Source: a virus. From it: a DNA stretch of 64,000 nucleotides. The translations under genes were made by a program, and so were the position numbers. Positions 19,113 through 39,456 of this stretch are shown piece after piece (position 1 is the first letter of the stretch; the number at the start of each line of letters is the position of its first letter). The stretch lies in the IMG/VR virus record IMGVR_UViG_3300047554_000471, positions 1-64,000 of that record, one strand, 5' to 3'. The notes under the pieces were generated by a model. The model was given only the letters and a program-made list of their open reading frames with translations, made no database searches and was not told the DNA's origin.

Positions 19113-21230
19113 ATGTCTTTACTTTCAACATACAAGATACCACAACCGCGTGGTTACTCAAATACATCGTACTATGTAGAGGATCGCTCAGCTACCTCTC
19201 CAGAGTACTTTGATGTAGAGTACTTTCCTACTGTAGTAGGAGGAGGTCGCCATGTAATTAAGCTGAAAGGTAATGGTGCAAACATGAAACTCAACAGCAC
19301 AATAGACGTTGAGATAGTGGATGCAGAAGGTCAGAGAATCTTTGCTGAGGTTGTAGATTTTGTTGATCGATTCAATAACTACTACATATCGTTTGACATA
19401 TACGATATAACAGCTCAAGGACTTGCAACAGTATACCTAGTTGGTGAGGCTATCATCGATAACCAGGGTAATCTAATACCACAAGAGTATCGCGGAGAGT
19501 ATAATGTAAGATGGGCTCGACAAATATCTATATTACCGTTTGAGAGAAACAACGCAGATTTGTTATTTGATGAACCACCATCAGTATCCGTAGCTCAAGT
19601 TGTAACGCCAGCACGAATAACGACAAACCAACAATCTGGTAGTACTGCCATATACACAACAACGACCAGTAGCATAGACCAATTAACGATAATCACATCA
19701 AACTTTCAGGGTTATGATAGGGATTTTGCATCTAGTGTCAATATCTTAGACGGTTATCTAAAAGCAATTACTGTCGATCCAACCAACAAACCACTAACAG
19801 CAAATAGTGTACCAACAGTCATTCGTAAGACAGAGGATGATATCCAAAATGGCTTTTCTGTAACCAACACATCACGATTTGGTACACTAGTAAAGGCAAC
19901 GTCGTCTTTCTTCTCAAAAGAGATGTTAGGAGGGTACTTTGAGTTTTTTGATTCAGAGTCGTTACCCAGATACCTAAGACCAAGTGCGTCAGGACATATC
20001 CAAGTCTCAGGATCCATCTCAGATCAACTACAATCATACAACGCTACTATTGTAGAGGTTGTGAATAGTACGCAGGCTGTTATCAGCAAAGCTCCATCCG
20101 TACTTGTATATAATACAAGAAGTTTGAGTTCTAATGCTGTGGAAGTTTTCACCTACAAGTCAGCAAGCTTGTTTACTGGAAGTGTTACATTTGTACCGAG
20201 TGTAAACACCTATGCTACGAGCTCAACTGTTAGTCAGTCGTATGTTGAATTTACATTTGGTGATTTGAGCCCAATAAGCGGTCAGGTGTATAGAATTAAG
20301 ACATCGGCTAAACTTGGATCTATCGTTGGTGATTACAAACTACTAAACGATCAGATTGTATCTCCAGTCGAATACTTAACCGATTCAGAATTTTCAAATG
20401 GATTAAACTTTGCTCGACATGATTCGGAGTATAGATTGATAGGTCATTTTAATACTGGATCTATTCTAAGTACTTATTGGAATCTGTATCAAGAGACACC
20501 AAACGGCTTTGACTTGGTGACTGGATCATTAAACACATCAGTATTAGCAGATTCTGTGAAATGTAATGCATCATACACTCAATCATTAGTATTGACGACA
20601 GCCTACAACCAAAACTACAACACAAACCAGACATACACACTAGGTTTTCAGTTGGTGTTAGATCCTTATACGGAGTTGGAGGTTTATATGAATAGTGATC
20701 CATTAAACACATACCTAATAACACCAACAATATATGCGAGAGCTTTCAATAAGACGTCTAACAACGAGAGAGCAAGATATGCAGGTGATACAAACCGCTT
20801 TGGGAAGTATATTGGAAAGATTGTAAACGATAGAAGTACTCGTAAGTATTACGGAAAACTTTTATTTGATTATACTACCGATGCTAATGGTTTTGGTAGA
20901 CCGCTAATGAGAACGAGAGTTATTGATGAGATGAATCAAACCGGTAGTGCTTACCTCAGTGAAGTGAGTGTAAAACCATACACACTCAACGGATTCACAC
21001 CAAACATTGTACAATATGCTGTACCATTACCGCAAGAGTTTATTAGTGCAGCTTCACTTTCACAATCAATCGACTTTAAAATAGATTACTTTGACTACAC
21101 AGGTCGACAATCAGAGTATACAACATTCTTGGATGATGTTACTTTGAACTTAAAAACAACAATCACCTCAAACACTTGTCAGGATGATAAGCTGTATTTT
21201 ACATACGACTTTGTGGAGTCTATTTATTAA
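19113..21230 (+). CDS. Virion protein, probable tail-surface or fibre component
   Basis: 705 residues. The first about 120 residues form a compact beta domain (VEYFPTVVGGGRHVIKLKGN, IDVEIVDAEGQRIFAEVVDF) that looks like an Ig/fibronectin-type attachment module. The remainder is Ser/Thr-rich and beta-like with no enzymatic motif. It is 2 bases from the next gene and shares its promoter. I do not recognise a named family; a fibre or baseplate-periphery role is inferred from composition and position. Confidence 0.65.
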   Translation: MSLLSTYKIPQPRGYSNTSYYVEDRSATSPEYFDVEYFPTVVGGGRHVIKLKGNGANMKLNSTIDVEIVDAEGQRIFAEVVDFVDRFNNYYISFDIYDITAQGLATVYLVGEAIIDNQGNLIPQEYRGEYNVRWARQISILPFERNNADLLFDEPPSVSVAQVVTPARITTNQQSGSTAIYTTTTSSIDQLTIITSNFQGYDRDFASSVNILDGYLKAITVDPTNKPLTANSVPTVIRKTEDDIQNGFSVTNTSRFGTLVKATSSFFSKEMLGGYFEFFDSESLPRYLRPSASGHIQVSGSISDQLQSYNATIVEVVNSTQAVISKAPSVLVYNTRSLSSNAVEVFTYKSASLFTGSVTFVPSVNTYATSSTVSQSYVEFTFGDLSPISGQVYRIKTSAKLGSIVGDYKLLNDQIVSPVEYLTDSEFSNGLNFARHDSEYRLIGHFNTGSILSTYWNLYQETPNGFDLVTGSLNTSVLADSVKCNASYTQSLVLTTAYNQNYNTNQTYTLGFQLVLDPYTELEVYMNSDPLNTYLITPTIYARAFNKTSNNERARYAGDTNRFGKYIGKIVNDRSTRKYYGKLLFDYTTDANGFGRPLMRTRVIDEMNQTGSAYLSEVSVKPYTLNGFTPNIVQYAVPLPQEFISAASLSQSIDFKIDYFDYTGRQSEYTTFLDDVTLNLKTTITSNTCQDDKLYFTYDFVESIY

Positions 21231-21232
21231 TT

Positions 21233-22603
21233 ATGGGTACATTATCAATTAAATCTTTTGACTTGGTATATAAGAGGTTAGGTCCAACTGGAAGTAACTC
21301 TTCACCAAGCCCATATTACGATGGTTATTTGCCTGAGTGGTGGTGGACAGCATCTTTAAATTATCCGGTATCAACAGCAACACCATCAGTATCTGGTGGA
21401 TGGTTGAACTTTCCACCAACAACAGTAGACACGTTTGTATCTACAAGACAATCCTCAAGTAATGCAACATACAAGGCTTTGCCATGGGGATCTTGTGCAA
21501 CAGACTTTTTGTGGAATATTGCAACGCCATCATGGTCTTTTTCAGATAGTAGTCAGGTTTATAGTGGGGCAACTTATGTTGTAAGGCAGTGGGGTGTTTC
21601 AACTAACTTTACGGGAAGCTTTCTTAAAAGGAATTGGAGTGGTTATAGTTCAGTTGGTGTTACGGCATACCCAGTAACCACTAGTTGGTATATCACAGAT
21701 CCAAAATTTGGTGCAGGAACAAATATGTACTACATCCATAGTAGGAATGGTTTATCAACCTATCCAACCTACGTAGGTAGTTGGTATGCGTATGCTGGAG
21801 TTGAGTATAGCGGGCTTGTTGCTTACGATGTAACGTGGCCAAACGTAACAAGCTCAAACGCTACATCATCGATTGACGGTCAGTATTTCGATCTGGGAGG
21901 AGGTGCAGCAATAACAAGAGCGGCAATAAGCAAGTCTTTTGTGACACAATCAATATCAGGCTCAGGAACTGGTACAGTTAATATTAGACACTACACTGAA
22001 GCTTTAAAATCTCGTAGACTATTCTTTCCAATTCCGGTTAGTGGTAGTGGAACTACTGGTGGAACGGATTACTTCTTTAAACTATTCTCAGGTTATGGAG
22101 CAAGTGAGATTTTTTCTGACAACGGAGGTATATATAACGTACAACTTTCCCTAAAAAGAAAAGTCTCAACTGATAACTATCCAGACACTGGATCATTCCT
22201 CAGCGTATTTATACACAACGTACAGTCTCAAGCTCCAACACCAACTGGTAGAATAGCCGGTGCTAGTGGTTGGTATCCACCTGATAATAATATTGTAAAG
22301 ATTGGACATGGCTACCAAGGAGGTCCTCAAATGTCGTTTTACGATGTGCAGACAGGTTATCAGATTGAAAGATTTAACTTTAACGTAATTCAATACGGTT
22401 ATCCAGCACAATTGTGCTTAGAGGCTTCAGGATCATTGACGGATAGTTCATTCTTTGGCATCATTATCGATGATTTGCAGATTTGCAAAATTGGTGTAAC
22501 AACAGATCCACGATTTATTAAACCAACGACTATTGCTCAAAATACATTCAACTTAGGTGCAATGGAAGCGCAGCAGTATGAACCACCATTAGAAGGATCG
22601 TGA
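21233..22603 (+). CDS. Virion protein, function unknown
   Basis: 456 residues, rich in Ser, Gly, Tyr and Trp, as in fibre or adhesin proteins (for example LPEWWWTASLNYPVS and SGYSSVGVTAYPVTTSWY). A later part (ITRAAISKSFVTQSISGS, then LSLKRKV) could be a jelly-roll or carbohydrate-binding fold, but no diagnostic motif is visible. It overlaps the next start by 4 bases (GTGA at 22600-22603). An accessory surface protein is the best guess. Confidence 0.6.
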   Translation: MGTLSIKSFDLVYKRLGPTGSNSSPSPYYDGYLPEWWWTASLNYPVSTATPSVSGGWLNFPPTTVDTFVSTRQSSSNATYKALPWGSCATDFLWNIATPSWSFSDSSQVYSGATYVVRQWGVSTNFTGSFLKRNWSGYSSVGVTAYPVTTSWYITDPKFGAGTNMYYIHSRNGLSTYPTYVGSWYAYAGVEYSGLVAYDVTWPNVTSSNATSSIDGQYFDLGGGAAITRAAISKSFVTQSISGSGTGTVNIRHYTEALKSRRLFFPIPVSGSGTTGGTDYFFKLFSGYGASEIFSDNGGIYNVQLSLKRKVSTDNYPDTGSFLSVFIHNVQSQAPTPTGRIAGASGWYPPDNNIVKIGHGYQGGPQMSFYDVQTGYQIERFNFNVIQYGYPAQLCLEASGSLTDSSFFGIIIDDLQICKIGVTTDPRFIKPTTIAQNTFNLGAMEAQQYEPPLEGS

Positions 22604-23148
22604 TAAGTAATAGCACCATAAGAAACTGTACAAGACCCTTTCCAGCAATACAAGGGCTGCTCAACGAGCATACACTTGGTAAGATTCTTATCAAAAACGT
22701 GTATCAGCCTTGGAATGGTGAAAGTGTAGTTGATATAAAACAGCGACATACAGATAATCCATACACCCTAAGAATAGGAACACCGTCTACAGACAAGCAG
22801 TTGAAGGAAGATGCTGTATATTTTATACTACATTATTTGGCATACAATCCAATAACAAAGGATATTGAGCGTCGTGAGATTGTACCACTACGCAACATGG
22901 AGAAGGTTTACATTGGTCAGTCATTAGATGAGGGTGTATATAAAGACTACCGATTGTTTGTTGATGGTAATGCAGTTGTAGATGATGTGTTTTTGAAAAA
23001 TCACGAACAGCTAAAAGATACATCTCTAGGACGTCTAATAATCAACTTAATGGATAGAACAGAGAAAATGCAGTTGGAGATTGCTAAATTAAAGCGTGAA
23101 CTCGATTCCAAACATATTTATATTCAAGACACCTTAAAGAATGAATAA
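22600..23148 (+). CDS. Conserved phage protein with C-terminal coiled coil
   Basis: 182 residues from a GTG start overlapping the previous stop; its end overlaps the next start by 8 bases. A compact N-terminal domain is followed by LFVDGNAVVDDVFLKNH and a charged helix (LINLMDRTEKMQLEIAKLKR) likely to be a coiled coil that oligomerises it. I do not recognise an enzymatic function. Its place between fibre genes and the internal-protein operon leaves either a tail-assembly or a structural role open. Confidence 0.6.
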   Translation: MISNSTIRNCTRPFPAIQGLLNEHTLGKILIKNVYQPWNGESVVDIKQRHTDNPYTLRIGTPSTDKQLKEDAVYFILHYLAYNPITKDIERREIVPLRNMEKVYIGQSLDEGVYKDYRLFVDGNAVVDDVFLKNHEQLKDTSLGRLIINLMDRTEKMQLEIAKLKRELDSKHIYIQDTLKNE

Positions 23149-25711
23149 ACTTACTAAATTCCTTGTAGAGGGAGTATTAAAGGAGGCGGAAGCCGGAATA
23201 ATTGTAATGTTACCAGGCGGTTTCAAACCTCCTCATGGTGGTCACTTGGAATTAGCAAAGCGTTACGCAGCATTACCTAATGTAGCAGAAGTGCGAATCT
23301 TGATTGGTCCTAAAGAGCGTGATGGAATCACTATGAAGCAGTCTATGGATGTGTGGAAAATCTTGTTAGGAGGTACTACTAATATAAAAGTGGAACAAGC
23401 TCCAAACGACAATCCAATGCGAGCAGCTTATGAGTTTGTAGAAAAAGCTCCAGCTGGAACATATGCTCTAGGAGCTAGCTCAAAAGGGAGTGATTATGCT
23501 CGTGTTAAGGGGTTTGTAGATGGACATGCGTTAGGAGCAAAGTATCACAGACCGGGTGTGAATGTTGTTGAGTTATCTCTAAACACATCACCAATCTTAT
23601 ACAAAGGTCGTACTGATGAATTAAACGGACAAGGTTTGAGTGCATCAACTCTAAGAGCTGATTTAGCAGCAAAAAACTTTGACAACTTCAAAACAAACTA
23701 TCCAGGTATACCAGAATCAACTGTAAAATCTGTATTTAAAATTCTAGCACCAGGACAACCATTACAAGAGGTTGATCTTTCTGCTATAGTAAAGAAGATC
23801 AGTTCAAGATTCCAAGCTTTTTTGAGATCGATAGCTGCTGAGAGTAGAGAGACTAAAGAAGCTTTTGTTATGTTGGCTCAAGCTGCTCAAGGTAAAAAAA
23901 CATTAACCGATGCTGAAAAGGAAGAGATCGGTAATCAGATGAAGGACGTATTGAAGACAGCTGGTATTATCGCAGCTAGTGTTCTTCCAGGTGGAACAAT
24001 TTATTTCATTTTGATTCGCTTATTGCGTTTAGAAAAATACACAATTCCTCAAAATTTCTTAAACAAAGTGGCAACAACAGCTCCACTACTGGAAGAGGAG
24101 ACTTTAAACGAGAATGCTGCAGTAATGGCTGCGATGGCAGCATCAACAGCTGCGTTATTAAGTTCGCAAGGAAAGTATAACAATGGTGGTGATTGGAGCT
24201 TTAATCCAATTGGCTGGTTTAAAGATTTCTTACAAGATAGAAAACTTCAAAAAATAGCTGACAGATTGGTTCAAGACCCAGAAATCCAAAAGCTAGTAAG
24301 GGATCACACATTCTTAGATAAGAATAAAAAAGTAATCGCTACTCAAAACATAAAAGGGATTCAATCGATCCTAAAAAACAAACTCAAACCAGAAGAGATG
24401 CAATATCTTAAATATGGTTGGGGTCCGAGATTAAGAAAAGCTATGAGTTTAACAGAAGGTAGACAGCTTCTTAAAGAGGGTGGCGCAGCAGGTCACATGA
24501 CACATCCTTATGAGGATTATGATTTAACATTCAAAGACGCTAACAATATGATTGATGCAGCTTTGAGTGGTAAGGTTGAATATGCTCAGGAAAAGTTAGA
24601 TGGTCAAAACCTTATGGCCACATACAAGGATGGTCAAGTTCGTGCAGCTAGAAACAAAGGGCATCTAAAAGATGCAGGTGCAACATCATTAACTGTTAAG
24701 CAGGTTGAGGATATGTTTGCAGGACGTGGAGCTATACAATCAGCTTTTGGAGAAGCGATGAAAGATTTAGAAGCTGCAATCAATAAATTAACACCAGAAC
24801 AAAAAGCTGAGTTTTTTGACAACGGTAAGAAGTTTGTCAACTTTGAAGTTCTCTATCCACCAACAAGTAATGTAATCCCTTACGGCGCTACGCAGTTAAG
24901 ATTACACAACATCACAGAATACGATCCAGCAGGTAATGTTGTAAATACAGACACCGATGCTGTTCATAAGCTAGATGGTGCACTACAACAAGTACAAGCT
25001 CAAAATCAAAAAACATACGAAATCCGTGTTACGGATCCAATCACAATTAATAAGTCAGCTGACTATGAAAAGCAGCGTGACGAATTACACCAGAGTCTTA
25101 GAAAACTTAGAGAGCAGTATAAGCTGAAAGAGGATGATAAGGTTAGTGTGTATATTCAAGCTTGGTGGACAAACTACATTAAGAACACTGCAAAACAATA
25201 TAGCTATGATGTTCCAGCAAACACCTTACAACAATTAATCAATCGTTGGGCTTATTCAAATAAAGAGGTTAACATTAAGGTTATTCGTGATGGTATCACA
25301 AACGAAGACTTCAAAAACTGGGTTGTAAATTTCGACAAAAAGGACTATGTTACCCAGAAGAAAATATGCATAAAACCTTTAGAGACAGTATTCCTTAAAC
25401 TTGGTGTTTATACATTGAAAAATGTATCGCAGTTGGTATCTCTAAACCCTAACGATACGGTTAGACAAATCAATAAGGATCTTGATGATGCAATTGCAAA
25501 AATCAAAGCTGCAGCACAAACTCCTGAGATGTCAGACGATGATACATCACTACTTTTCTTAAAAAGAGAGTTAACAAGACTTAAAGATATTGGAGGTTTT
25601 AAAGCAATTGTACCACTAGAGGGTATTGTATTCAAATATAACGGAAAACTCTACAAACTGACTGGAGCATTTGCACCAATCAATCAAATTCTAGGGTACT
25701 TAAAATTCTAA
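23141..25711 (+). CDS. Cytidylyltransferase-like / nucleic-acid-ligase-like nucleotidyltransferase fusion
   Basis: 856 residues. Residues 20-200 form a HIGH-type nucleotidyltransferase domain (as in NMN adenylyl- or cytidylyltransferases): GGFKPPHGGH at 26-35 and a late LSASTLR standing for ISSTxxR. The middle (about 210-440) includes a LETM1-like helical stretch (TDAEKEEIGNQMKDVLK, then VLPGGTIYFIL). From about 450 the protein has covalent nucleotidyltransferase motifs of DNA/RNA ligases: KLDG at 485-488 (probable AMP-accepting Lys485), ARNKGHL, FEV near 568-570, EGIVFK at 827-832 and KLT at 839-841. The N-terminus MNKLTKFLVEG resembles the T4 capsid-targeting peptide. Substrate and biological role are unknown; DNA/RNA repair or NAD-related activity are both possible. 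Confidence 0.8.
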   Translation: MNKLTKFLVEGVLKEAEAGIIVMLPGGFKPPHGGHLELAKRYAALPNVAEVRILIGPKERDGITMKQSMDVWKILLGGTTNIKVEQAPNDNPMRAAYEFVEKAPAGTYALGASSKGSDYARVKGFVDGHALGAKYHRPGVNVVELSLNTSPILYKGRTDELNGQGLSASTLRADLAAKNFDNFKTNYPGIPESTVKSVFKILAPGQPLQEVDLSAIVKKISSRFQAFLRSIAAESRETKEAFVMLAQAAQGKKTLTDAEKEEIGNQMKDVLKTAGIIAASVLPGGTIYFILIRLLRLEKYTIPQNFLNKVATTAPLLEEETLNENAAVMAAMAASTAALLSSQGKYNNGGDWSFNPIGWFKDFLQDRKLQKIADRLVQDPEIQKLVRDHTFLDKNKKVIATQNIKGIQSILKNKLKPEEMQYLKYGWGPRLRKAMSLTEGRQLLKEGGAAGHMTHPYEDYDLTFKDANNMIDAALSGKVEYAQEKLDGQNLMATYKDGQVRAARNKGHLKDAGATSLTVKQVEDMFAGRGAIQSAFGEAMKDLEAAINKLTPEQKAEFFDNGKKFVNFEVLYPPTSNVIPYGATQLRLHNITEYDPAGNVVNTDTDAVHKLDGALQQVQAQNQKTYEIRVTDPITINKSADYEKQRDELHQSLRKLREQYKLKEDDKVSVYIQAWWTNYIKNTAKQYSYDVPANTLQQLINRWAYSNKEVNIKVIRDGITNEDFKNWVVNFDKKDYVTQKKICIKPLETVFLKLGVYTLKNVSQLVSLNPNDTVRQINKDLDDAIAKIKAAAQTPEMSDDDTSLLFLKRELTRLKDIGGFKAIVPLEGIVFKYNGKLYKLTGAFAPINQILGYLKF

Positions 25712-25714
25712 AAA

Positions 25715-26029
25715 ATGAAACTAAAAAAATTACTCGAAAATCAAAGACTAGAAGAAAAGAAGGAAGCGATTGCTTCCTCTCCTAGTACAAACATGACCCT
25801 ACACTACGATGCTGATTTCAAAAACGTGGGAGAAGAGGGAAGTCCTGAGTTTAGCTTTACCATCAGTATATCATCAGTTGGAGGAAAGGAGTTCTTTCGT
25901 TCAGTGGGTGATAGCAATGAGAGCGCTAAGCTTGCCGAAGGTGTACGATTAGAGCTTCGTAGAGCTTTACGTAAGTTTGATAAAAACGTACAATTCGTAA
26001 TCGAAAAATACAAGTTACAAGCACGATGA
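25715..26029 (+). CDS. Small conserved phage protein
   Basis: 104 residues. An N-terminal amphipathic segment (MKLKKLLENQRLEEKK) with an LLE site precedes a small alpha/beta domain (FSFTISISSVGGKEFFRSVG, then a basic helix LRRALRKFD). There is no signal peptide or membrane segment. It sits 3 bases after the nucleotidyltransferase fusion and overlaps the next gene by 4 bases, so all are co-translated. The short N-terminus resembles the leaders of other small proteins here and could be a capsid-targeting peptide; this is inference. Function unknown. Confidence 0.6.
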   Translation: MKLKKLLENQRLEEKKEAIASSPSTNMTLHYDADFKNVGEEGSPEFSFTISISSVGGKEFFRSVGDSNESAKLAEGVRLELRRALRKFDKNVQFVIEKYKLQAR

Positions 26030-26529
26030 GAGATTTATTTGTTACGACAGACTCCAAGTATACAAAGCGTATTGAAGGCGATGTGTGGGAGGAGCAAGGA
26101 AAGTTATGGACCATTAAGAATGGTATAAAAAGAACGGTATCTAAAATGGAAGCAGCTAGAAAGGAGTTGCTGACACCTTTAGCATGTCCGAATTGTGGAA
26201 GAGCCATGAAGCATCATTTGGATGAAAAAGCTTGGGCTACTCACAAAACCTGTTTTGAGTGTGTTATCGATGCAGATCATAAAATGATGAAAAACGGTGA
26301 GTGGTCTGAGTATGAGAAGCAACTTATGCTTAATAACGCACAAGCGTTTTTAAAAGAGTTTGAATCCTACATGAAGGATTATATGGATGAGAGTGTTTCA
26401 AGTTCTAATGTTACCGAGGATGGTATGGTTGAGCGTTGGAAGGACGTAAGTCAAGACCACCTAGAAGAAATTAAAAATCAGGTAGTAGAAAAACTTGAAC
26501 AAAATATTAAAGAGATAAGAGAAAAGTAA
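26026..26529 (+). CDS. Conserved zinc-ribbon phage protein
   Basis: 167 residues. C54, C57, C76 and C79 (CPNC and CFEC) form a likely structural zinc site. The preceding WEEQGKLWTIKNGIKRTVSK is a pattern I associate with large myophages. A helical, acidic C-terminus follows. The family has no established function that I can name; zinc ribbons of this kind often mediate protein or nucleic-acid contacts. It overlaps both neighbours (ATGA upstream, shared A at 26529 downstream). Confidence 0.65.
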   Translation: MRDLFVTTDSKYTKRIEGDVWEEQGKLWTIKNGIKRTVSKMEAARKELLTPLACPNCGRAMKHHLDEKAWATHKTCFECVIDADHKMMKNGEWSEYEKQLMLNNAQAFLKEFESYMKDYMDESVSSSNVTEDGMVERWKDVSQDHLEEIKNQVVEKLEQNIKEIREK

Positions 26530-27137
26530 TGGATTCAGCAATTGTAGCAGCATTTTTGACTGGGGTACTAGGACCAATTGTAGTTCTAGTAACTCGATAT
26601 ACAATCGAACGACGCAAGAAGAAAACCGATATGGTTCAGGAGGCGTTAGAAACTAGTGAAAAAGTGCTCGCAAAGATGGAGCATATTCGAGATGAGTTCC
26701 ATGCAGATCGAGTATGGGTATCTCAGTTTCACAATGGAGGTCACTTTTATCCAACCGGAAAGAGTATCGCTAAGTTTAGCGTTGTGTATGAAGTTGTGTC
26801 TGCAGGTGCTACATCAATCCAAACAAACTTTCAAAACATTCCCGTTAGTCTGTTCTCAAGATTTATCAATCAACTACTAGAAAATGATATTATTGAGGTT
26901 CCAGATTTCAAAGATGAAACAATCGCAACGTGGGGATTGAAGTATATAGCTGAGGAGTCTGGAACAAGATCCGAGTATATTTTTGCTGTTAAGAATATTG
27001 AAGGAAAGTTTATAGCCATTATGGGTATTGACTACACAAAGAGAAAAACTAAACTAGGTATGGAAGATATTAACCACCTAGCAAACCACGCAACTGCAAT
27101 TGGTGGTGTATTAGACACACACTTAAACAAAAAGTAA
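26529..27137 (+). CDS. Membrane-anchored GAF-like protein
   Basis: 202 residues. One N-terminal membrane segment (residues about 4-24, AIVAAFLTGVLGPIVVLVTR) is followed by a basic stop-transfer cluster (ERRKKK) and a short helix. The rest resembles a GAF-type sensor fold, with VWVSQFHNGGHFYPTGKS in the middle and FIAIMGIDYTKRK near the end. I see no output domain. An inner-membrane protein facing the cytoplasm is most likely. The ligand and role are unknown; lysis timing or superinfection control are guesses. Confidence 0.6.
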   Translation: MDSAIVAAFLTGVLGPIVVLVTRYTIERRKKKTDMVQEALETSEKVLAKMEHIRDEFHADRVWVSQFHNGGHFYPTGKSIAKFSVVYEVVSAGATSIQTNFQNIPVSLFSRFINQLLENDIIEVPDFKDETIATWGLKYIAEESGTRSEYIFAVKNIEGKFIAIMGIDYTKRKTKLGMEDINHLANHATAIGGVLDTHLNKK

Positions 27138-28270: not shown

Positions 28271-28693
28271 ATGAAAAATAACAAAACGAAAGCGAAATTA
28301 GCTGAGAGCTTATTACGTCGTTATATTCAAAAAGAGATTCGTAAGATCATGGAAGCAGATGAGGAGAACACAGAAGAAACTCCTACAGATACTCCGGCTG
28401 AAGAACCCAAACAAGATCCTACAACAGCACCTACTCCAGAACCAAAGAAGAAGGAAGAGCCTAAACCTGAACCTACTCCTGAACCTACTCCTGAACCAGA
28501 ACCGGAAGTTGGTTTAAACCAAGACTTTCAAGATGCAATAGATCAATTCGTACAAAAGCTAAAAACTAGTACAGAACCGGTTGAACAAGAGGATCTAGTT
28601 ACTATGGTAGGTGATCTTATTGATATGTTTGTACAATCTAGTGAGGGTAAATTAAAATTATTACAAGCAGTAAAATCAAACATCGTACAATAA
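28271..28693 (+). CDS. Acidic Pro/Glu-rich protein, candidate internal protein
   Basis: 140 residues. A basic amphipathic N-terminus (MKNNKTKAKLAESLLRRYIQ, then KEIRKIMEADE) carries LAE and IME sites that fit the T4 prohead-protease rule [LI]xE. A low-complexity linker of Pro-Glu-Pro-Thr repeats follows (about residues 35-78), then a small helical domain. The linker is likely unfolded. The layout, basic cleavable-looking leader plus acidic body, resembles T4-like internal or core proteins, but homology is not shown. The stop overlaps the next start by one base. Confidence 0.6.
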   Translation: MKNNKTKAKLAESLLRRYIQKEIRKIMEADEENTEETPTDTPAEEPKQDPTTAPTPEPKKKEEPKPEPTPEPTPEPEPEVGLNQDFQDAIDQFVQKLKTSTEPVEQEDLVTMVGDLIDMFVQSSEGKLKLLQAVKSNIVQ

Positions 28694-29591: not shown

Positions 29592-31163
29592 ATGTCGGAA
29601 AAGACTTTAAAAGATATAATCAAGGAGGAGTATGTAAAGTGTGCAAAGTCTGCAACCTACTTCATGAAGAAGTATTGTATGATTCAGCACCCGACTAAAG
29701 GAAAAATTCCATTTCATCTATATCCATACCAGGAAGATTCGTTACAAGACTTTCAAGAAAACGACCGTGTAATTATTTTGAAATCTAGGCAGCTAGGTAT
29801 CTCAACATTGATTGCGGGTTACGCTTTATGGATGATCTTGTTTCAAAACGACAAGAACTGTCTGGTAGTTGCGATTGACCAAAACACATCAAAGAACCTT
29901 GTAACAAAGGTGAAGGTAATGTTTGATAACTTACCTAGTTGGCTTAAATTGAAAGCTGTTGAAAGTAATAAACTTTCGATCAGATTATCAAACGGATCTC
30001 AAATCAAAGCCGTATCAAGTACAGGAACATCAGGACGTTCAGAAGCATTATCGTTAGTTATTATCGATGAGGCGGCTTTCGTTGATGGAGCTGAGGAGTT
30101 ATGGGCATCACTACAACAGACGTTGAGTACGGGTGGTCAGGGTATCTTACTATCAACACCAAACGGTACCGGTAACTTCTTTCACAAGATGTGGACAAAA
30201 GCAGAAGCTGGAGAGAACAAGTTTAAGACATTACGACTTCCATGGCAAGTGCATCCTGAAAGGGATCAAACTTGGAGAGATCGACAAGATGCGGAGCTTG
30301 GTTTACGACTAGCGGCTCAGGAGTGTGACTGTGACTTTAGTACATCAGGTAACACAGTCGTATCACCAGAACTCATATCCTACTACATGCAAACCTACGC
30401 TCAAGAGCCAATCGAGAAGCGAGGTTTTGATGGAAACTATTGGGTATGGGAGTTTCCAGATTACACAAAGAACTACATTCTAACTGCCGACGTTGCTCGT
30501 GGAGATGGTAGTGACTACTCTGCATTCCATGTCATAGAGGTAGAATCTTGTAGACAAGTTGCTGAGTATAAAGGTCAGGTAGGAACGAAGGAATTTGGTA
30601 ATCTACTAGTTGCAGCAGCTACTGAGTGGAATAACGCACTCCTTGTGATTGAAAACGCAAACGTAGGATGGGCATCAATTCAGCAGGTAATCGATAGAAA
30701 CTATTCAAACCTATATTACACCTACAAGCAAGATGCATTAGACTCTGACAAATTCTTAACAAAAGGATATGACTTGGCTTCTAAGACGGATATGGTTGCA
30801 GGATTCACAATGAGTCATAAAACAAGACCTTTAGTGATTTCTAAGTTGGAGTTGTTTATCCGCGAAAATAGTTGTATAATACGTAGTAAGCGCTTGCTTG
30901 ATGAGCTTTTTGTATTCATATGGAAAAGCGGTAGAGCAGAAGCAGCTCAGGGCTATAACGATGACTTGGTTATGAGTTTTGGTCAAGGGTTGTGGGTTAG
31001 AGATACAGCATTGAAGCTCAGACAAGCCGGTATAGAAATTAACAGAGTGGCAATGAACAATATCAAGACAACCGTACCCGTTTATACACGACCTCAGTCT
31101 AGTAATCCATGGAATATGGTAGACAATAAGGGGAACAATGAGGACATGGGATGGCTTCTTTAA
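29592..31163 (+). CDS. Terminase large subunit (T4 gp17-like)
   Basis: 523 residues. The ATPase half shows a Walker-A-like KSRQLGIST at 64-72 and Walker B LVIIDEAAF near 155-163. The RNase-H-type nuclease half shows TADVARGDGSDYSAF near 297-311, VIENAN, and a final DDLVMSFGQGLW. This is the packaging motor that translocates DNA into the prohead through the portal and cuts the concatemer. It is somewhat shorter than T4 gp17 (610). The gene stands 15 bases after the coiled-coil gene and 31 before the portal gene. No small terminase subunit is recognisable nearby. Confidence 0.95.
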   Translation: MSEKTLKDIIKEEYVKCAKSATYFMKKYCMIQHPTKGKIPFHLYPYQEDSLQDFQENDRVIILKSRQLGISTLIAGYALWMILFQNDKNCLVVAIDQNTSKNLVTKVKVMFDNLPSWLKLKAVESNKLSIRLSNGSQIKAVSSTGTSGRSEALSLVIIDEAAFVDGAEELWASLQQTLSTGGQGILLSTPNGTGNFFHKMWTKAEAGENKFKTLRLPWQVHPERDQTWRDRQDAELGLRLAAQECDCDFSTSGNTVVSPELISYYMQTYAQEPIEKRGFDGNYWVWEFPDYTKNYILTADVARGDGSDYSAFHVIEVESCRQVAEYKGQVGTKEFGNLLVAAATEWNNALLVIENANVGWASIQQVIDRNYSNLYYTYKQDALDSDKFLTKGYDLASKTDMVAGFTMSHKTRPLVISKLELFIRENSCIIRSKRLLDELFVFIWKSGRAEAAQGYNDDLVMSFGQGLWVRDTALKLRQAGIEINRVAMNNIKTTVPVYTRPQSSNPWNMVDNKGNNEDMGWLL

Positions 31164-31194: not shown

Positions 31195-33045
31195 ATGGCT
31201 GAAAATAAGACACTCTTTAGCAGGCTACAAAAGCTCTTTAGTACGGATGTAATCATCCGTAACGTGGGTGGAAACCAACTAAAGGTAATCGATACAGCTC
31301 GCATTCAATCTGACGGAAACATTAACACAAACCGTCGAATTGATCGATTCTCAAGACTTTTCTCAACAGTACCTGGCATGTCTCAACATGCTGGTCAATT
31401 GCAATTATACACTCGTTTAGAGTTATTCCGTGACTATGAAGCAATGGATACGGATAGTATTATCTCATCAGCGCTAGACATTTATGCAGATGAGTGTACT
31501 GCAAAGAATGAGTATGGTGATATGTTAACTATCACAACTGGAAACGATAAGGTACAAAAGGTACTGCATAACCTATTCTACGACGTATTGAATATTGAGT
31601 TCAATTTATGGCCATGGATTAGAAACACAGTCAAGTATGGTGACTTTTTCTTACACCTCAACGTTGCAGAGAAGTTTGGTGTAATTAATGTAGAACCTAT
31701 TTCAGCTTATGAGATGATCAGAGAAGAAAACTTTGATCCAGAAAACCCTACAAAGGTACAATTCCGTAGAGATACAACAGCTGTATCTGGAGTGACTCAT
31801 GTAGCTAGTGTGCGTAGAGAGGGTGAGGTATACGACAATTATGAAATAGCTCACTTCCGTCTACTAACAGATACAAACTTCCTACCATACGGCCGTGCTA
31901 TTATCGAGCCATCTAGAAAGGTTTGGAAGCAAATCACATTAATGGAAGATGCGATGTTAATTCATCGTATCATGAGAGCACCAGATAAGCGTATTTTCAA
32001 AATCGATATCGGTAATATTCCACCTGCAGAAGTTGATGCTTTCATGGAGGGTATGATTAATCGTATGAAGAAAGTGCCATACGTTGATCCAGAGACTGGT
32101 CAGTACAACTTAAAATACAACATGCAAAACCTACTTGAAGATTTTTATCTTCCAGTACGTGGATCAGAAAGTGGTACAAATATCGAGCCATTAGCTGGAT
32201 TAAACTACGATGGTATTACGGATATCGAGTACTTAAAAAATCGTTTATTAGGATCTCTAAAGATTCCAAAAGCTTACTTGGGTTATGAAGAAGACACCAC
32301 AGGTAAAGCGACTTTGGCATCACAAGATTTCCGTTTTGCTAGAACGGTAGAGCGTGTACAGAAAATCATCACATCTGAGTTGTATAAGATTGCAATCGTT
32401 CATCTATACTCACAAGGGTTTACAGATGAGGATTTGGTAGACTTCAGTCTCAGTTTAACAGCACCATCTTCCGTATACGAAAAAGAGAAGATTGAGTTGT
32501 GGACTAGTAAAGTTACTTTAGCTGGTGATATGATTGAGAAGAAGTTATTCAGTCGCAATTGGGTTTATGAGCAATTATTTGGCTTAACTGAGAATGAATA
32601 CTTGATGGAACAAAATCGAATTGTGGAAGATACAAAAGCACAATTTAGATTAGAGCAGATTAAGACAGAGGGTAATGACCCTATCAAAACCGGACAATCG
32701 TTCGGAACACCACACGACCTAGCAGCTCTATATAAAGGTGGTGGTGAAGTGCCAAAAGGTTATGATGAGAGACAGGCACAGATGCCTAAAGGAGGTTGGC
32801 CAGGAGCAGGACGTCCAGAGGAGCCAGGAACACATGGAACACATGAGCATCCGCTTGGGTGGGATCCATTGGGTAACAAGGCTATCCGTAAGGTTTATGA
32901 GAGTTCTAAGAGAAGAGCGTTATACGAGGGATTGATTACAGAATTGGATAAGAAGAAAAATGCAATACAGGATACGTTTGAATCTGAGCGTTTTGAAGAA
33001 AATTCAAATTTGTTGAACGAGGATAATATCTTACAAGAAGAATAA
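31195..33045 (+). CDS. Portal protein (T4 gp20-like)
   Basis: 616 residues. The body follows T4-like portal proteins: SRLFSTVPGMSQHAGQL, YEAMDTDSIISSALDIYADE, RAPDKRIFKIDIGNIP, and IEYLKNRLLGSLKIPKAYLG before the helical C-terminus. The dodecameric portal is the DNA channel at the unique capsid vertex, docking the terminase and later the neck. The C-terminal about 110 residues are low-complexity, with Gly/Pro and a His-rich patch (GTHGTHEHPLGWDPLG), unlike T4. It has its own TATTTATT box and begins the head-assembly cluster. Confidence 0.93.
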   Translation: MAENKTLFSRLQKLFSTDVIIRNVGGNQLKVIDTARIQSDGNINTNRRIDRFSRLFSTVPGMSQHAGQLQLYTRLELFRDYEAMDTDSIISSALDIYADECTAKNEYGDMLTITTGNDKVQKVLHNLFYDVLNIEFNLWPWIRNTVKYGDFFLHLNVAEKFGVINVEPISAYEMIREENFDPENPTKVQFRRDTTAVSGVTHVASVRREGEVYDNYEIAHFRLLTDTNFLPYGRAIIEPSRKVWKQITLMEDAMLIHRIMRAPDKRIFKIDIGNIPPAEVDAFMEGMINRMKKVPYVDPETGQYNLKYNMQNLLEDFYLPVRGSESGTNIEPLAGLNYDGITDIEYLKNRLLGSLKIPKAYLGYEEDTTGKATLASQDFRFARTVERVQKIITSELYKIAIVHLYSQGFTDEDLVDFSLSLTAPSSVYEKEKIELWTSKVTLAGDMIEKKLFSRNWVYEQLFGLTENEYLMEQNRIVEDTKAQFRLEQIKTEGNDPIKTGQSFGTPHDLAALYKGGGEVPKGYDERQAQMPKGGWPGAGRPEEPGTHGTHEHPLGWDPLGNKAIRKVYESSKRRALYEGLITELDKKKNAIQDTFESERFEENSNLLNEDNILQEE

Positions 33046-33928: not shown

Positions 33929-34658
33929 GAAATTAACACTAAAAGAGGTAGAAGAGGTACGTAGGTATATTAAGAAACTGCGCAAAGAAGGTAGTACTTC
34001 AGATGGTGCAGGTGCATTTCATACACCAGGAGCTTTTACCGGAGATCCAAAAGATGATGGAACTCAGGCGGTTGATCTAGAAGACGAGCAATTTGCTTAT
34101 AGCAAAAAAGCTTCTGAAGATCATCCACACACAATCAAGCTACATGAAGTTAGCTATAAAGCTTTCAAGACAGATCCAACTGCTAATGAAGTTCAAAAGG
34201 TAAATAGAAAAATTCTCGAAGTGAATAAGATGCTTAGAGAGATTTCTAGAGCTTTAGACCATAGCATGAAGTTAAAGACCGAATCGTCATTAGATAACAG
34301 TCGCTATTGGAAGCGTACAAATGAAGCTATCTTAAAGATTAGCAACAGATTATCTGAGATAAATAAAAAAGCACGTAATTTAGCAAACCTAAAAGAACTT
34401 GCAGCTACTGCTGTTAAGGATAAACTAGTACAGCTATTTGCAAAAGCTGGATTGACCGTCAAACCTCAAGATATCGATTACAATCAGTTGGGTACTGAGT
34501 GGTATGAATTTGATGTTATGCTCGATGGAGAGCCATATGCTATCGACTATCGTAATGGTGAATTAATGTATCAAGCTTACGATGAGGAGATTAGACTAGG
34601 AAACTTCAACCAAGAACAACAATTAGTACAGAACATAACTAAAGAATTTAAAGCATGA
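33918..34658 (+). CDS. Head-cluster protein, function unknown
   Basis: 246 residues. A basic helix (LKEVEEVRRYIKKLRKEG) is followed by a Gly/Pro linker with GAGAFHTPGAF, a helical region (IKISNRLSEIN-type) and a small C-terminal alpha/beta domain (DIDYNQLGTEWYEFDVMLDG). The linker with TPGAF is a pattern I associate with T4-like phage proteins. The gene overlaps the previous one by 11 bases and the protease gene by 4. A prohead core role is inferred from position. Confidence 0.6.
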   Translation: MSSKKLTLKEVEEVRRYIKKLRKEGSTSDGAGAFHTPGAFTGDPKDDGTQAVDLEDEQFAYSKKASEDHPHTIKLHEVSYKAFKTDPTANEVQKVNRKILEVNKMLREISRALDHSMKLKTESSLDNSRYWKRTNEAILKISNRLSEINKKARNLANLKELAATAVKDKLVQLFAKAGLTVKPQDIDYNQLGTEWYEFDVMLDGEPYAIDYRNGELMYQAYDEEIRLGNFNQEQQLVQNITKEFKA

Positions 34659-35272
34659 GCAAGCAAGTAATAGTTGACTTCATAGGCTCTCTACAATTTA
34701 CTCCAGAGCAGATTAACGAATCAATTAGCCAAAATAGTGGTAAGTTGATTGTTAGTGGTGTAATGCAAAGAGGTAGTTCAAACATGGATCAAAACTTCAA
34801 CCAAAATGGTAGAAGTTATCCTATGCCTATTCTAAAGCGTGAGTGTGAAAAATACAAAAAAGTATTTGTAGCCGAGCGTAGAGCGTTGGGAGAATTAGAT
34901 CACCCAGAATCTTCTGTAGTAAACTTAGCTAACGTATCCCATAATATTTTGGACTTGTGGTGGGAAGGTAATGACTTGATGGGTAAGATTGAAATACTAT
35001 CTACACCATCAGGAAACATTGCTAAGGAGTTATTGAAAGCGGGTATCCGTTTGGGTATCAGCTCTAGAGGTATGGGCTCGGTTAAAAACCTAGGAGAGGG
35101 TAAGGTAGAAGTTCAAGACGACTTTGAAATCGTTTGCTGGGATTTAGTATCTAACCCATCAACACAAGGTGCTTTCATGAATAACCTAAATGAGGGTGTA
35201 TCTCATAGCACAAATAACAACAAATACAACAAAGTGAACTCACTGATCAGTGATATAATCTCAATAATGTAA
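34655..35272 (+). CDS. Prohead maturation protease (T4 gp21-like)
   Basis: 205 residues, close to T4 gp21 (212). The assemblin/U9 serine protease motifs are visible: GELDHP with the catalytic His83, GISSRGMG with the nucleophilic Ser at 136-137, and a later VCWDLVSNPS. In T4 this enzyme is packaged in the prohead, cleaves scaffold, capsid and internal proteins after [LI]xE, and destroys itself. Candidate targets of the same rule occur in the capsid protein and several small proteins here. The start overlaps the previous gene by 4 bases; the next gene begins one base after its stop. Confidence 0.93.
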   Translation: MSKQVIVDFIGSLQFTPEQINESISQNSGKLIVSGVMQRGSSNMDQNFNQNGRSYPMPILKRECEKYKKVFVAERRALGELDHPESSVVNLANVSHNILDLWWEGNDLMGKIEILSTPSGNIAKELLKAGIRLGISSRGMGSVKNLGEGKVEVQDDFEIVCWDLVSNPSTQGAFMNNLNEGVSHSTNNNKYNKVNSLISDIISIM

Positions 35273-35273
35273 T

Positions 35274-35633
35274 ATGAAACTCAAAAAGATAAAAGAGAGT
35301 ATCGACCAGAAGGTTGAACTAAACGAAAAAGCTCAGTTTTTAGAAGAGGTTTCTAGATTCAACGAGTATGGCGCGAGAATATATCGCACAGATGACTTGC
35401 GTGAAGCAGCAGCTGCAATTAGCAAGATTGTTGAAAACGCAGAAAGAATTGCTCTTCAAGAGACTGATGAGTGGTTTGATGAGATCACTGTGAAGCGTAA
35501 TATGAAGGGTCTACGATCAAACAATGAGCAGTTCATGAAGACTGTAAAAGAGGTTGCTAAATTACAGCAACGTCTAGAATCGTTGTATGAAGAAATGGGT
35601 CACACACTATCACGCTACTATGAAGTTAAATAA
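35274..35633 (+). CDS. Small coiled-coil head-cluster protein
   Basis: 119 residues. Nearly all helical with heptad-like charged sequence (EQFMKTVKEVAKLQQRLESL near the C-terminus). The basic N-terminus MKLKKIKESIDQKVELNEKA resembles those of neighbouring small proteins. No enzymatic motif. Placed between protease and scaffold, it may be a prohead core component. The next gene starts within its last 14 bases. Confidence 0.6.
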   Translation: MKLKKIKESIDQKVELNEKAQFLEEVSRFNEYGARIYRTDDLREAAAAISKIVENAERIALQETDEWFDEITVKRNMKGLRSNNEQFMKTVKEVAKLQQRLESLYEEMGHTLSRYYEVK

Positions 35634-37845: not shown

Positions 37846-39456
37846 ATGAACTTATTCGAAAACCTAGGAAATGTCAACCGCGCCGAAGAGGTTAAGCCGT
37901 TGATTTCTAAATGGTCAAAAACTGGCCTTTTGGAAGGTTTGAAAGGGAACAACGAAAAATCAACCGTTGCTGTCCTTTTGGAAAACCAAGCAAAACAATT
38001 AATTAAAGAAGGATCTGTATCAACAGCTGGTCAAGGTACAAGCGGATACGAGCAATACCACGGTGTAGCTCTTCCATTAGTACGTCGTATCTTTGCTGAG
38101 ATCGCAGCTAAAGAATTCGTTAGCGTACAGCCAATGAATTTACCTTCTGGTCTAGTATTCTACTTAGACTTCAAATATGGTAACAACAAAGCTCCTTTTG
38201 GATACGATCCAACTGGTCAAAACCAAACTGGTACACTTCAAGGTGTTACTAATGGTACTGGTGCTCCTAAAGATGGTCTTTATGGTGCAGGTCGTTTTGG
38301 GTACTCTCAAAATGGTGTAGTATCTGCTAACCCTGGTGCAGCTTATGTAACTACTGGTTCAGCAACTGCTGCTTCTGTTAACTACGATGGTGACTTCACT
38401 GCTTCACTTTCTAGCTACCGTACTGTAACTTTCACTGGATTCTTCGCTACTGAATCTAAAGCTGACCAATACGCAGTTCGTTCATTCCAACCATTCTCTG
38501 GTTCAACTGCATTTGTTGCTGGTACAACTTTCTTCCCTGCGTTTACTAAGAAATCAGGTAACGACTTGATCTTCGTAGTAGCAAACTCAGGTCTTACAAC
38601 TGGTTCTTGGGGAACAGCAGCTGTTAGCTACTCTATCCAACCTACTAATGACGCACGTAGCGACTTCGAAACTGCTAACGGCCGTACATTAGACACTAAC
38701 CTTAACATCCCTGAAATCGAATTGCAAATGCGTTCAATTCCAGTGACTGCTAAGACTCGTAAGTTGAAAGCAAGCTGGACTCCAGAATTTGCGCAAGACC
38801 TTAACGCATACCACTCTGTAGATGCTGAAGCTGAATTAACAGCTATGTTATCTGAGTACGTTTCTATGGAAATTGACTTAGAGATCCTAGATATGTTGAT
38901 TTCTGCTGCTGACACTACTGAGTACTGGTCTGCTCGCACAAACGAAATTTGGAACGGTTCTGCATTCGTTTCTGATACCAACGTAAGCGGTAACGCATAT
39001 GTACAAGGTACTTGGTTCTCTACTTTAGGAACTAAATTGCAAAAAGTTTCTAACCAAATTCACGCAAAAACATTACGTGGTGGTGCAAACTTCCTAGTAT
39101 GTTCTCCAAACGTGTCTACTATTCTTGAGTCTATCCCTGGATACGCTGCAGATGGTGATGGTGAGAAAATGAAGTATGCAATGGGTGTTCAAAAAGTAGG
39201 TGCTTTAACTAGCCGCTACCAAGTTTACAAAAACCCTTACATGCAAGAGAACACTGTATTGATGGGCTTCAGAGGTAACCAATTCTTGGAAACTGGTGCT
39301 GTATATGCTCCTTACGTTCCATTGATGCTTACTCCTCTAGTGTACGATCCTAACAACTTCATCCCACGTCGTGGTGTGATGACTCGCTACGCGAAAGTTG
39401 TTACTCGTCCTGAGTTCTATGGTAAAGTGTATGTTGGTGCAATCAACAACATCTAA
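37846..39456 (+). CDS. Major capsid protein (T4 gp23-like)
   Basis: 536 residues, near T4 gp23 (521). The family signature is clear: TRKLKASWTPEFAQDLNAYH followed by SVDAEAELTAMLSEYVSMEI, then GGANFLVCSPNVSTILESIP, and the ending NFIPRRGVMTRYAKVVTRPE. A candidate maturation cleavage lies at QLIKE-GS (after Glu55), compared with Glu65 in T4. An insert of beta-rich Gly/Ser/Thr sequence (residues about 115-270) probably decorates the capsid surface. It follows the scaffold by 20 bases without its own TATTTAT box, so they are co-transcribed. A strong terminator follows. Codons often end in T (GGT, ACT, GCT), consistent with high expression. Confidence 0.96.
   Translation: MNLFENLGNVNRAEEVKPLISKWSKTGLLEGLKGNNEKSTVAVLLENQAKQLIKEGSVSTAGQGTSGYEQYHGVALPLVRRIFAEIAAKEFVSVQPMNLPSGLVFYLDFKYGNNKAPFGYDPTGQNQTGTLQGVTNGTGAPKDGLYGAGRFGYSQNGVVSANPGAAYVTTGSATAASVNYDGDFTASLSSYRTVTFTGFFATESKADQYAVRSFQPFSGSTAFVAGTTFFPAFTKKSGNDLIFVVANSGLTTGSWGTAAVSYSIQPTNDARSDFETANGRTLDTNLNIPEIELQMRSIPVTAKTRKLKASWTPEFAQDLNAYHSVDAEAELTAMLSEYVSMEIDLEILDMLISAADTTEYWSARTNEIWNGSAFVSDTNVSGNAYVQGTWFSTLGTKLQKVSNQIHAKTLRGGANFLVCSPNVSTILESIPGYAADGDGEKMKYAMGVQKVGALTSRYQVYKNPYMQENTVLMGFRGNQFLETGAVYAPYVPLMLTPLVYDPNNFIPRRGVMTRYAKVVTRPEFYGKVYVGAINNI

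What the first reader, a model, noticed from the sequence alone, without database searches (positions are those of the whole stretch)
23141..25711. Cytidylyltransferase-like plus ligase-like nucleotidyltransferase in one protein
GGFKPPHGGH and LSASTLR mark a HIGH-type nucleotidyltransferase; KLDG, EGIVFK and KLT mark a separate covalent AMP/GMP-transferring (ligase-like) domain, with a LETM1-like helical stretch between. I know no established role for this combination. Possible roles: repair of nicked RNA or DNA cut by host defences, or NAD-linked counter-defence, both inferred.
Basis: partly seen in the sequence, partly recalled or inferred. Interest (0 to 1): 0.75.

Follow-up and report, generated by a model that had tools for sequence, protein, structure and literature searches.

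The report
Capsid-packaged NMNAT-like plus RNA-ligase-like polyprotein
A phage gene encodes a chain of enzymes, one that resembles an NAD-making enzyme and one that resembles an RNA-joining enzyme, apparently loaded into the virus head, cut apart there and probably injected with the DNA; hundreds of aquatic phage fragments carry the same unannotated module.

Summary
Window 23141-25711 (+) encodes an 856-aa protein of a T4-like phage related to Bacteroidota phages. Residues 20-203 fold confidently as a HIGH-superfamily adenylyltransferase (NadM/NadD/PPAT-like). Residues ~452-856 fold as a covalent nucleotidyltransferase whose best structural matches are RNA ligases. Lys485, Asp487, Gly488, Glu569, Glu827 and Lys839 are invariant in 49 non-redundant relatives. 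The ligase-like domain passes no Pfam or PHROG threshold, yet at least 583 IMG/VR contigs encode it, nearly always just upstream of TerL-portal. It has a capsid-targeting-like N-terminus, and its T4-type prohead-protease sites (L/I-x-E) fall between domains, including immediately before the ligase domain. The same motif occurs in the capsid protein. In relatives, other enzyme cassettes (kinase, HAD phosphatase, Nudix, Pol-beta, ParB) sit beside the two domains. Cyanophages pair a diverged ligase-like domain (DUF6267, unknown function) with the same HIGH enzyme, fused in reverse order or as neighbouring genes, and published proteomics finds the HIGH enzyme in cyanophage virions. Most likely role: an injected kit for NAD restoration and RNA-end repair. 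Packaging is strongly suggested; the catalytic roles are inferred.

The parts
23141..25711 (+). Complete ORF, 856 aa: targeting tag, HIGH adenylyltransferase, helical cassettes, RNA-ligase-like domain
   Evidence: homologues; dN/dS about 0.04
23141..23185 (+). Residues 1-15 MNKLTKFLVE|GVLKE|: amphipathic helix, capsid-targeting-like tag with two L-x-E sites
   Evidence: L-x-E in residues 8-22 in 26/27 relatives against 3.6 expected from shuffles; within the window such tags occur only in head-cluster genes; helix 3-18
23198..23749 (+). HIGH-superfamily nucleotidyltransferase (NMNAT/NaMNAT/PPAT fold), residues 20-203
   Evidence: AF2 pLDDT about 92; Foldseek best NadM 2qjo E 1.7e-4; VIA Z 14.6 PPAT, 13.1 NadM
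23234..23245 (+). HxGH motif HGGH, residues 32-35
23636..23656 (+). ISSTxxR-type motif LSASTLR, residues 166-172
   Evidence: R172 invariant in A3
23762..23770 (+). Putative prohead-protease site LQE|V, residues 208-210, after the HIGH domain
   Evidence: pLDDT <50 at 207-211
23771..24076 (+). Optional helical cassette with a hydrophobic segment ('LETM1-like'), residues 211-312
   Evidence: absent in L009, L010, L014
24086..24112 (+). Putative protease sites LLE|E, LEE|E, LNE|N, residues 316-324
   Evidence: pLDDT <50 at 304-322
24113..24448 (+). Second optional cassette, residues 325-436, shared with L012, absent in L005
24449..24478 (+). Putative protease sites LTE|G and LKE|GG just before the ligase domain, residues 437-446
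   Evidence: [LIVF]xE|GG in 34/48 non-redundant relatives; segment unstructured in both models
24479..25708 (+). RNA-ligase-like covalent nucleotidyltransferase domain, residues 447-856
   Evidence: AF2 pLDDT 91.7; T4 Rnl1 9do4 E 8.7e-4; Naegleria RNA ligase Z 9.0; weak PF09414 in 20/33 members
24494..24517 (+). Family signature HxxHPxED, residues 452-459 (also HLEHxED in DUF6267)
   Evidence: H452, H455, P456 invariant 49/49; H7, H10, E12 invariant 23/23 in DUF6267
24590..24604 (+). Motif I EKLDG; predicted AMP-accepting Lys485 at 24593-24595
   Evidence: invariant 49/49
24836..24859 (+). Motif III VNFEVLYP, Glu569
   Evidence: invariant Glu; placed on T4 Rnl1 E159 by hhalign, not significant
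24896..24922 (+). Motif IIIa LRLHNITEY, His589
   Evidence: 48/49; FHTxY in DUF6267
25064..25606 (+). Family-specific helical insertion between motifs IIIa and IV, residues 642-822
25619..25633 (+). Motif IV EGIVF, Glu827
   Evidence: invariant 49/49
25655..25663 (+). Motif V K839-L-T841 (KxT, not the canonical KxK)
29592..31163 (+). Terminase large subunit; syntenic downstream neighbour
   Evidence: PF03237 2.9e-13; synteny
31195..33045 (+). T4-like portal protein (gp20)
   Evidence: PF07230 1.8e-66
34655..35272 (+). Prohead protease (gp21-like), presumed processing enzyme
   Evidence: matches the annotated prohead protease of Mel-JY01 (51%) and of immuto (55%)
38002..38010 (+). Likely capsid-protein maturation site IKE|GS (residues 53-55 of the ORF at 37846)
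   Evidence: sits where immuto has VSE|AN; T4 gp21 motif L/I-x-E from PMC9026906

Best explanation
This is a head-packaged polyprotein ('polyvalent' protein) of a T4-like phage. Its N-terminal tag takes it into the prohead core. The phage's gp21-type protease then cuts at L/I-x-E sites, removing the tag and releasing the HIGH adenylyltransferase, the helical cassette(s) and the ligase-like domain. The pieces stay in the head and enter the cell with the DNA. There the HIGH enzyme most likely makes NAD from NMN or NaMN, and the ligase-like domain takes AMP onto Lys485 and seals or adenylylates broken RNA ends (for example nicked tRNA), protecting infection before any phage gene is expressed. SHOWN computationally: both folds, invariant catalytic residues, clustering of L-x-E sites at the tag and domain borders, head-gene locus, exchangeable cassettes, and the equivalent pair in cyanophages. 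REPORTED by others: NMNAT-like proteins in cyanophage virions. INFERRED: cleavage, ejection, substrates and RNA repair.
For: Folds. Invariant K485/E569/E827/K839. Weak but recurrent PF09414 RNA_ligase at motif I in 20/33 members. L/I-x-E sites are about 10-fold denser in tag and linkers (middle cassettes included) than in the two domains (65 against 20 sites, Fisher p 4e-25, not corrected for phylogeny), and an N-terminal site occurs in 26/27 relatives against 3.6 in shuffles. Border sites coincide with low-confidence breaks of the models. Tags of this kind occur only in the head cluster of the window, 0 of about 31 other genes. Capsid protein has the same motif. T4 gp21 cuts after L/I-x-E, and T4 internal proteins carry 10-19-residue targeting propeptides: PMC9026906. 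Synteny with TerL-portal in about 70 loci. Cassettes (kinase/zeta, Nudix, HAD, ParB, Pol-beta). Cyanophage pairing DUF6267 + HIGH, fused or adjacent. NMNAT-like or cytidylyltransferase proteins in virions of S-SM1, S-CREM2, S-SCSM1.
Against: No virion proteomics was found for this phage or a close relative. In 13 of 48 non-redundant relatives the pre-ligase site has Met or Cys instead of Glu (LLLM|GG, LLLC|GG), and several of these have no nearby alternative. Cyanophage DUF6267 proteins lack the tag, and their presence in virions was not established. The second Lys of motif V is replaced by Thr. Profile comparison with T4 Rnl1 is not significant (E about 0.14). Structural matches cover only about 180 of 412 residues at 12-17% identity. 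In the marine clade the HIGH motif is mostly GPHH (first His lost; 12 of 30 readable motifs), so that enzyme may have changed function. The Flavobacterium phage immuto has the HIGH domain at this locus without the ligase.
Confidence: 0.6

Rival explanations
1. The two enzymes form one NAD-coupled cycle. The ligase-like domain uses NAD as AMP donor, releasing NMN, and the HIGH domain regenerates NAD from NMN and ATP. The conserved HxxHPxED signature before motif I would take the place of the Ia NAD-binding domain of bacterial DNA ligases.
For: The two domains are paired in Bacteroidota-type phages (HIGH then ligase) and in cyanophages (ligase then HIGH, or adjacent genes), which suggests a shared pathway. 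A HxxH..ED signature is conserved in both families and precedes motif I.
Against: Best structural matches are ATP-dependent RNA ligases; no Ia-like domain was recognised; some genomes separate the pair (S-SCSM1) or keep one partner (immuto HIGH only; L003 ligase alone).
Confidence: 0.15
2. The partners are co-packaged only because head loading favours fusion: independent counter-defence effectors (NAD restoration; tRNA repair) without a shared pathway, as proposed for polyvalent proteins in general.
For: Highly variable cassettes beside the two domains; the polyvalent-protein precedent PMC5512222.
Against: The HIGH-ligase pairing is far more constant than the other cassettes and recurs in cyanophages in the opposite order.
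Confidence: 0.3
3. The ligase-like domain does not join nucleic acid but adenylylates or caps another target (protein, RNA 5' end, small molecule), or is a structural or tail-assembly factor, recalling T4 Rnl1's second role in tail-fibre attachment.
For: Motif V lacks the second Lys; large family-specific helical insertion; no OB domain; the neighbouring upstream genes (19113-22603) are not identified and could be tail or fibre genes; T4 Rnl1 is annotated as tail fibre attachment factor and RNA ligase.
Against: The catalytic residues needed for AMP transfer are invariant, and kinase and phosphatase-like cassettes occur beside the domain in relatives.
Confidence: 0.25
4. Ordinary intracellular enzyme expressed from a late operon, not packaged; the L-x-E motifs are coincidental.
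For: No direct virion data for this phage; some relatives lack the Glu before the ligase domain.
Against: 26/27 N-terminal sites, head-cluster-specific tags, sites in unstructured borders, and virion detection of cyanophage NMNAT-like proteins.
Confidence: 0.15

Closest known systems
Polyvalent proteins of phages and conjugative elements (Iyer et al. 2017, PMC5512222)
   Same: Large phage protein with several disparate enzymatic domains and exchangeable cassettes (ParB, zincin, Pol-beta, P-loop in relatives), predicted to enter the cell with DNA
   Different: In the passages read, RNA ligases are mentioned only as phage enzymes that the 2H domains of these proteins do not associate with; a HIGH + ligase pair was not found described there; processing here is predicted by the separate gp21-type prohead protease rather than a built-in zincin
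Cyanophage DUF6267 (PF19782) + cytidylyltransferase/NMNAT-like (PHROG 395) pair, e.g. S-PM2d138, Syn9 gp183-gp184
   Same: Same two activities, fused or adjacent; collinear HxxH..ED, KxDG, FH, EGxV, K motifs; the HIGH partner reported in virions of other cyanophages
   Different: Reverse domain order; no N-terminal tag on the ligase part; about 9% identity in the Foldseek match; DUF6267 has no assigned function
T4 RNA ligase 1 / Rnl2 / Naegleria and archaeal RNA ligases
   Same: Nucleotidyltransferase fold, motif I Lys, motif III and IV Glu, motif V Lys
   Different: KxT instead of KxK in motif V, about 180-residue helical insertion, no OB or known C-terminal ligase domain, fused in a head polyprotein
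NadM / NadR / NadD / CoaD adenylyltransferases
   Same: HIGH fold, HxGH and ISSTxxR-type motifs; relatives also carry Nudix (as NadM) or P-loop kinase (as NadR) cassettes
   Different: No family cut-off reached; different order and partners; substrate untested
Flavobacterium phage immuto gp183 (annotated NMNAT, NadR)
   Same: Same locus upstream of TerL-portal, same GGFKPPH...SATxxR HIGH domain
   Different: Pol-beta-like NTase in front and two zincin-like motifs behind; no ligase domain
T4 internal head proteins (IPI-III, Alt)
   Same: Short targeting propeptide cut after L/I-x-E; injected with DNA
   Different: Single proteins, not enzyme chains; no sequence relationship seen

Membership tests
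RNA ligase / covalent nucleotidyltransferase superfamily | Nucleotidyltransferase fold | tested here: met
   AF2 pLDDT 91.7; Foldseek T4 Rnl1 E 8.7e-4, VIA Z up to 9.0 to RNA ligases
RNA ligase / covalent nucleotidyltransferase superfamily | Motif I KxDG, acidic residue of motif III, Glu of motif IV | tested here: met
   K485, D487, G488, E569, E827 invariant in 49 relatives
RNA ligase / covalent nucleotidyltransferase superfamily | Motif V KxK | tested here: not met
   K839-[LF]-T841; Thr invariant
RNA ligase / covalent nucleotidyltransferase superfamily | Lysyl-AMP formation and strand sealing | not testable with these tools
   needs a bench assay
Pfam RNA_ligase PF09414 | Gathering score 27 | tested here: not met
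   best 18.1 bits, E 0.003, weak match in 20/33 members
DUF6267 PF19782 | Pfam model match | tested here: not met
   no match by the window protein; fold similarity to S-PM2d138 E 2.7e-4; hhalign E 0.075-0.21
HIGH superfamily (CTP_transf_like PF01467) | Fold, HxGH and ISSTxxR motifs | tested here: met
HIGH superfamily (CTP_transf_like PF01467) | Pfam gathering score 21 | tested here: inconclusive
   no match by the window protein; met by relatives L001, L002, L021, L023, L031, L032, L050
NMN adenylyltransferase (NadM/NadR/archaeal NMNAT) | NCBIfam equivalog cut-off | tested here: not met
   all scores far below the cut-offs
Polyvalent proteins | Several domains with disparate activities in one phage polypeptide | tested here: met
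   HIGH + ligase; cassettes in relatives
Polyvalent proteins | Transfer into the host with the DNA | not testable with these tools
   only indirect: tag and protease sites; cyanophage virion proteomics in papers
gp21-processed T4-type head proteins | L/I-x-E site behind a 10-20-residue N-terminal tag | tested here: met
   LVE|G at 10, LKE|A at 15; 26/27 relatives
gp21-processed T4-type head proteins | Processed product in virions | not testable with these tools
   no proteomic data for this phage

The most novel reading that the evidence does not exclude
T4-like phages of Bacteroidota and cyanobacteria share an ancient, head-delivered two-enzyme system in which a new class of ligase-like nucleotidyltransferase (including DUF6267) works together with an NMNAT-like enzyme, possibly using NAD as AMP donor with NMN recycling, to repair host or phage nucleic acid at the moment of entry.
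Probability: 0.2. Interest if true: 0.88.

Novelty: new variant of a known kind. Interest (0 to 1): 0.72.

Why it matters
The finding proposes a biochemical activity for both, explains why an NMNAT-like protein keeps appearing in cyanophage virions, and suggests that common aquatic phages inject a pre-made, protease-released enzyme kit. It makes specific tests possible: virion N-terminomics, lysyl-AMP assays, and NAD and RNA-repair assays in the first minutes of infection.

Tried and rejected
Sequence-only routes to a ligase family: Pfam, PHROGs, NCBIfam and PDB hmmsearch gave nothing above thresholds; the PDB hits to eS6 and S-layer proteins were judged chance. hhalign against T4 Rnl1 and DUF6267 put motif I in register but was not significant, and one of five column-shuffled controls scored as high. 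DNA ligase and mRNA-capping readings were set lower: no OB domain after motif V, and RNA ligases rank above DNA ligases and guanylyltransferases. A true cytidylyltransferase reading was set lower because nearly all the listed fold matches are adenylyltransferases. A cellular origin was set aside: only 6 MAG contigs matched in the genome collection, taken as likely phage contamination. LETM1 identity of the middle stretch was not confirmed.
Full report
OBSERVATION. The ORF 23141-25711 (+) is real, 856 aa, and carries the stated motifs at the stated places. It lies in a 69.6-kb virus record, upstream of a T4-type terminase (29592), portal (31195), gp21-like prohead protease (34655), scaffold-like protein (36803) and major capsid protein (37846). 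The portal is about 51% identical to Microcystis phage Mel-JY01 and Flavobacterium phage immuto, so a Bacteroidota host is likely (inference). Between the window and L005 the gene is under strong purifying selection: dN 0.02-0.04, dS 0.6-0.9.

N-TERMINAL ENZYME. Residues 20-203 are predicted with high confidence. The top Foldseek match is NadM, followed by NadD and PPAT; the VIA Z-scores are 13-14.6. HxGH and SASTLR are present. The domain is therefore most likely a HIGH-superfamily adenylyltransferase, and 'cytidylyltransferase' is only the superfamily label. NCBIfam NMNAT cut-offs are not reached, so the substrate is open. In the marine clade many members read GPHH instead of HxGH.

C-TERMINAL ENZYME. 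The 412-residue model (33 sequences) has pLDDT 91.7 and pTM 0.88. Its matches are T4 Rnl1 (E 8.7e-4), archaeal RNA ligases, Rnl2 and, by VIA, Naegleria RNA ligase (Z 9.0), Rnl1, Trl1 and Rnl2, with DNA ligases and capping enzymes lower. Motif residues are invariant in 49 non-redundant relatives. Sequence support is weak but recurrent: PF09414 RNA_ligase at motif I in 20 of 33 members, best E 0.003, and two members with sub-threshold PHROG hits to T4 Rnl1. Unusual features are KxT in motif V, a helical insertion of about 180 residues between motifs IIIa and IV, no OB domain, and a signature HxxHPxED before motif I. hhalign against T4 Rnl1 is not significant, so membership of a named RNA-ligase family is not claimed.

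HEAD POLYPROTEIN. T4 gp21 cuts after L/I-x-E, and T4 internal proteins carry 10-19-residue targeting propeptides (PMC9026906). Here the protein begins MNKLTKFLVE|GVLKE|A; further sites follow the HIGH domain (LQE|V 210), the first cassette (LLE, LEE, LNE; 318-324) and precede the ligase (LTE|G 439, LKE|GG 446). In 13 relatives such sites are about ten times denser in tag and linkers (middle cassettes included) than in the two domains; 26 of 27 relatives have one in residues 8-22 against 3.6 expected; 34 of 48 have [LIVF]xE|GG immediately before the ligase domain. These counts are not corrected for phylogeny, and LLLM|GG or LLLC|GG variants exist. The border sites fall in the low-confidence breaks of the models. 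The capsid protein of the same phage has IKE|GS where immuto has VSE|AN. Across the window, N-terminal tags with [LIV]xE|small occur in seven head-cluster genes and in none of about 31 tail or other genes.

CASSETTES AND SYNTENY. In about 70 loci the gene sits just upstream of TerL and portal. Complete ORFs run from 421 aa (ligase alone, L003) to 1701 aa. Other modules beside the HIGH and ligase domains include P-loop/zeta kinase (L030, L050, L055), Nudix (L064, L068, L071), a HAD-type motif (L018, L019), ParB (L002, L032), a Pol-beta-like motif (L043, L083) and the helical cassette of the window. Kinase, phosphatase and ligase together recall RNA end-healing and sealing; Nudix or kinase with NMNAT recalls NadM and NadR. 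Immuto has a Pol-beta-like + HIGH + zincin-like protein at the same locus. The family is almost absent from cellular genomes (6 MAG contigs).

CYANOPHAGE COUNTERPART. The viral structure library returned, besides close relatives, S-PM2 and other 'cytidyltransferase-like' proteins. S-PM2d138 has DUF6267 (PF19782, E 1.6e-111) followed by the HIGH domain; in Syn9 the two are adjacent genes (gp183, gp184), and gp184 begins MKKFSAFLSE|A. DUF6267 conserves HLEH.E, KWDG, QGD, FHT.Y, EG.V and K in 23 of 23 non-redundant sequences, in the same order as here. In nearly all loci read with enough downstream sequence the HIGH domain is fused behind DUF6267 or lies just downstream, though S-SCSM1 separates them. 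DUF6267 occurs in 467 deposited phage records; no paper in the library mentions it. Published proteomics: a 'putative citidylyltransferase' in S-SM1 virions (PMC3037559), a cytidylyltransferase in S-CREM2 (PMC10665884), and NMNAT in S-SCSM1 with an earlier report for S-CBWM1 (PMC9602691). Those authors already suggested that the NMNAT may act after injection, and caution that carry-over in CsCl purification is possible; the ligase-like partner and the processing are the new parts here. Homology between DUF6267 and the window's ligase domain rests on fold similarity (E 2.7e-4, TM 0.41 by query) and motif order; profile comparison is not significant.

MECHANISM. Step 1, tag-driven loading into the prohead: strongly suggested. 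Step 2, release by the gp21-like protease: strongly suggested. Step 3, ejection with DNA: inferred from T4 internal proteins and polyvalent proteins (PMC5512222). Step 4, NAD synthesis by the HIGH enzyme: plausible, substrate untested. Step 5, AMP transfer through Lys485: likely. Step 6, RNA sealing as against other targets or an NAD-coupled cycle: open.

VERDICT. A real, widespread and unannotated module. It works like a polyvalent, T4-type packaged effector, with a new ligase-like family as constant part. Interest 0.72; new variant of a known kind.

Noticed in passing
window 26026-26529 and the same position in most loci: A zinc-ribbon-like protein (CPNC...CFEC) follows the polyprotein in nearly all relatives; it may be a functional partner.
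   Followed up: no
window 25715-26029, 28271-28693, 34655-35272, 35274-35633, 35620-35985, 35985-36635: Six further head-cluster proteins carry N-terminal L/I/V-x-E tags, candidates for packaged or processed proteins.
   Followed up: partly
L088 7132-9855 (Flavobacterium phage immuto): The protein annotated 'NadR NMN adenylyltransferase' is Pol-beta-like NTase + HIGH + two zincin-like motifs, a polyvalent protein at the syntenic locus.
   Followed up: partly
L004 946-1569 (Prevotella phage Lak-A2): Lak megaphages carry a stand-alone 207-aa HIGH nucleotidyltransferase close to the window's N-terminal domain.
   Followed up: no
L030, L031, L043, L050 and other marine relatives: The HIGH motif is mostly GPHH, with the first catalytic His lost and a His gained at the Gly position; the activity may have changed.
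   Followed up: no
L032 1278-4826: Relative with HIGH, ParB-like, Ros/MucR zinc-finger and possibly HNH-type segments before the ligase domain.
   Followed up: no
window 26529-27137: Short protein with weak matches to PHROGs 14038 and 38864 and a possible N-terminal membrane segment; function unclear.
   Followed up: no
L135 record (PA5oct, 212789-213304) and BFVD A0A4Y5JUK8: Pseudomonas phage PA5oct also has a PHROG 395 HIGH domain and a 446-aa protein with weak similarity to the ligase-like fold.
   Followed up: no
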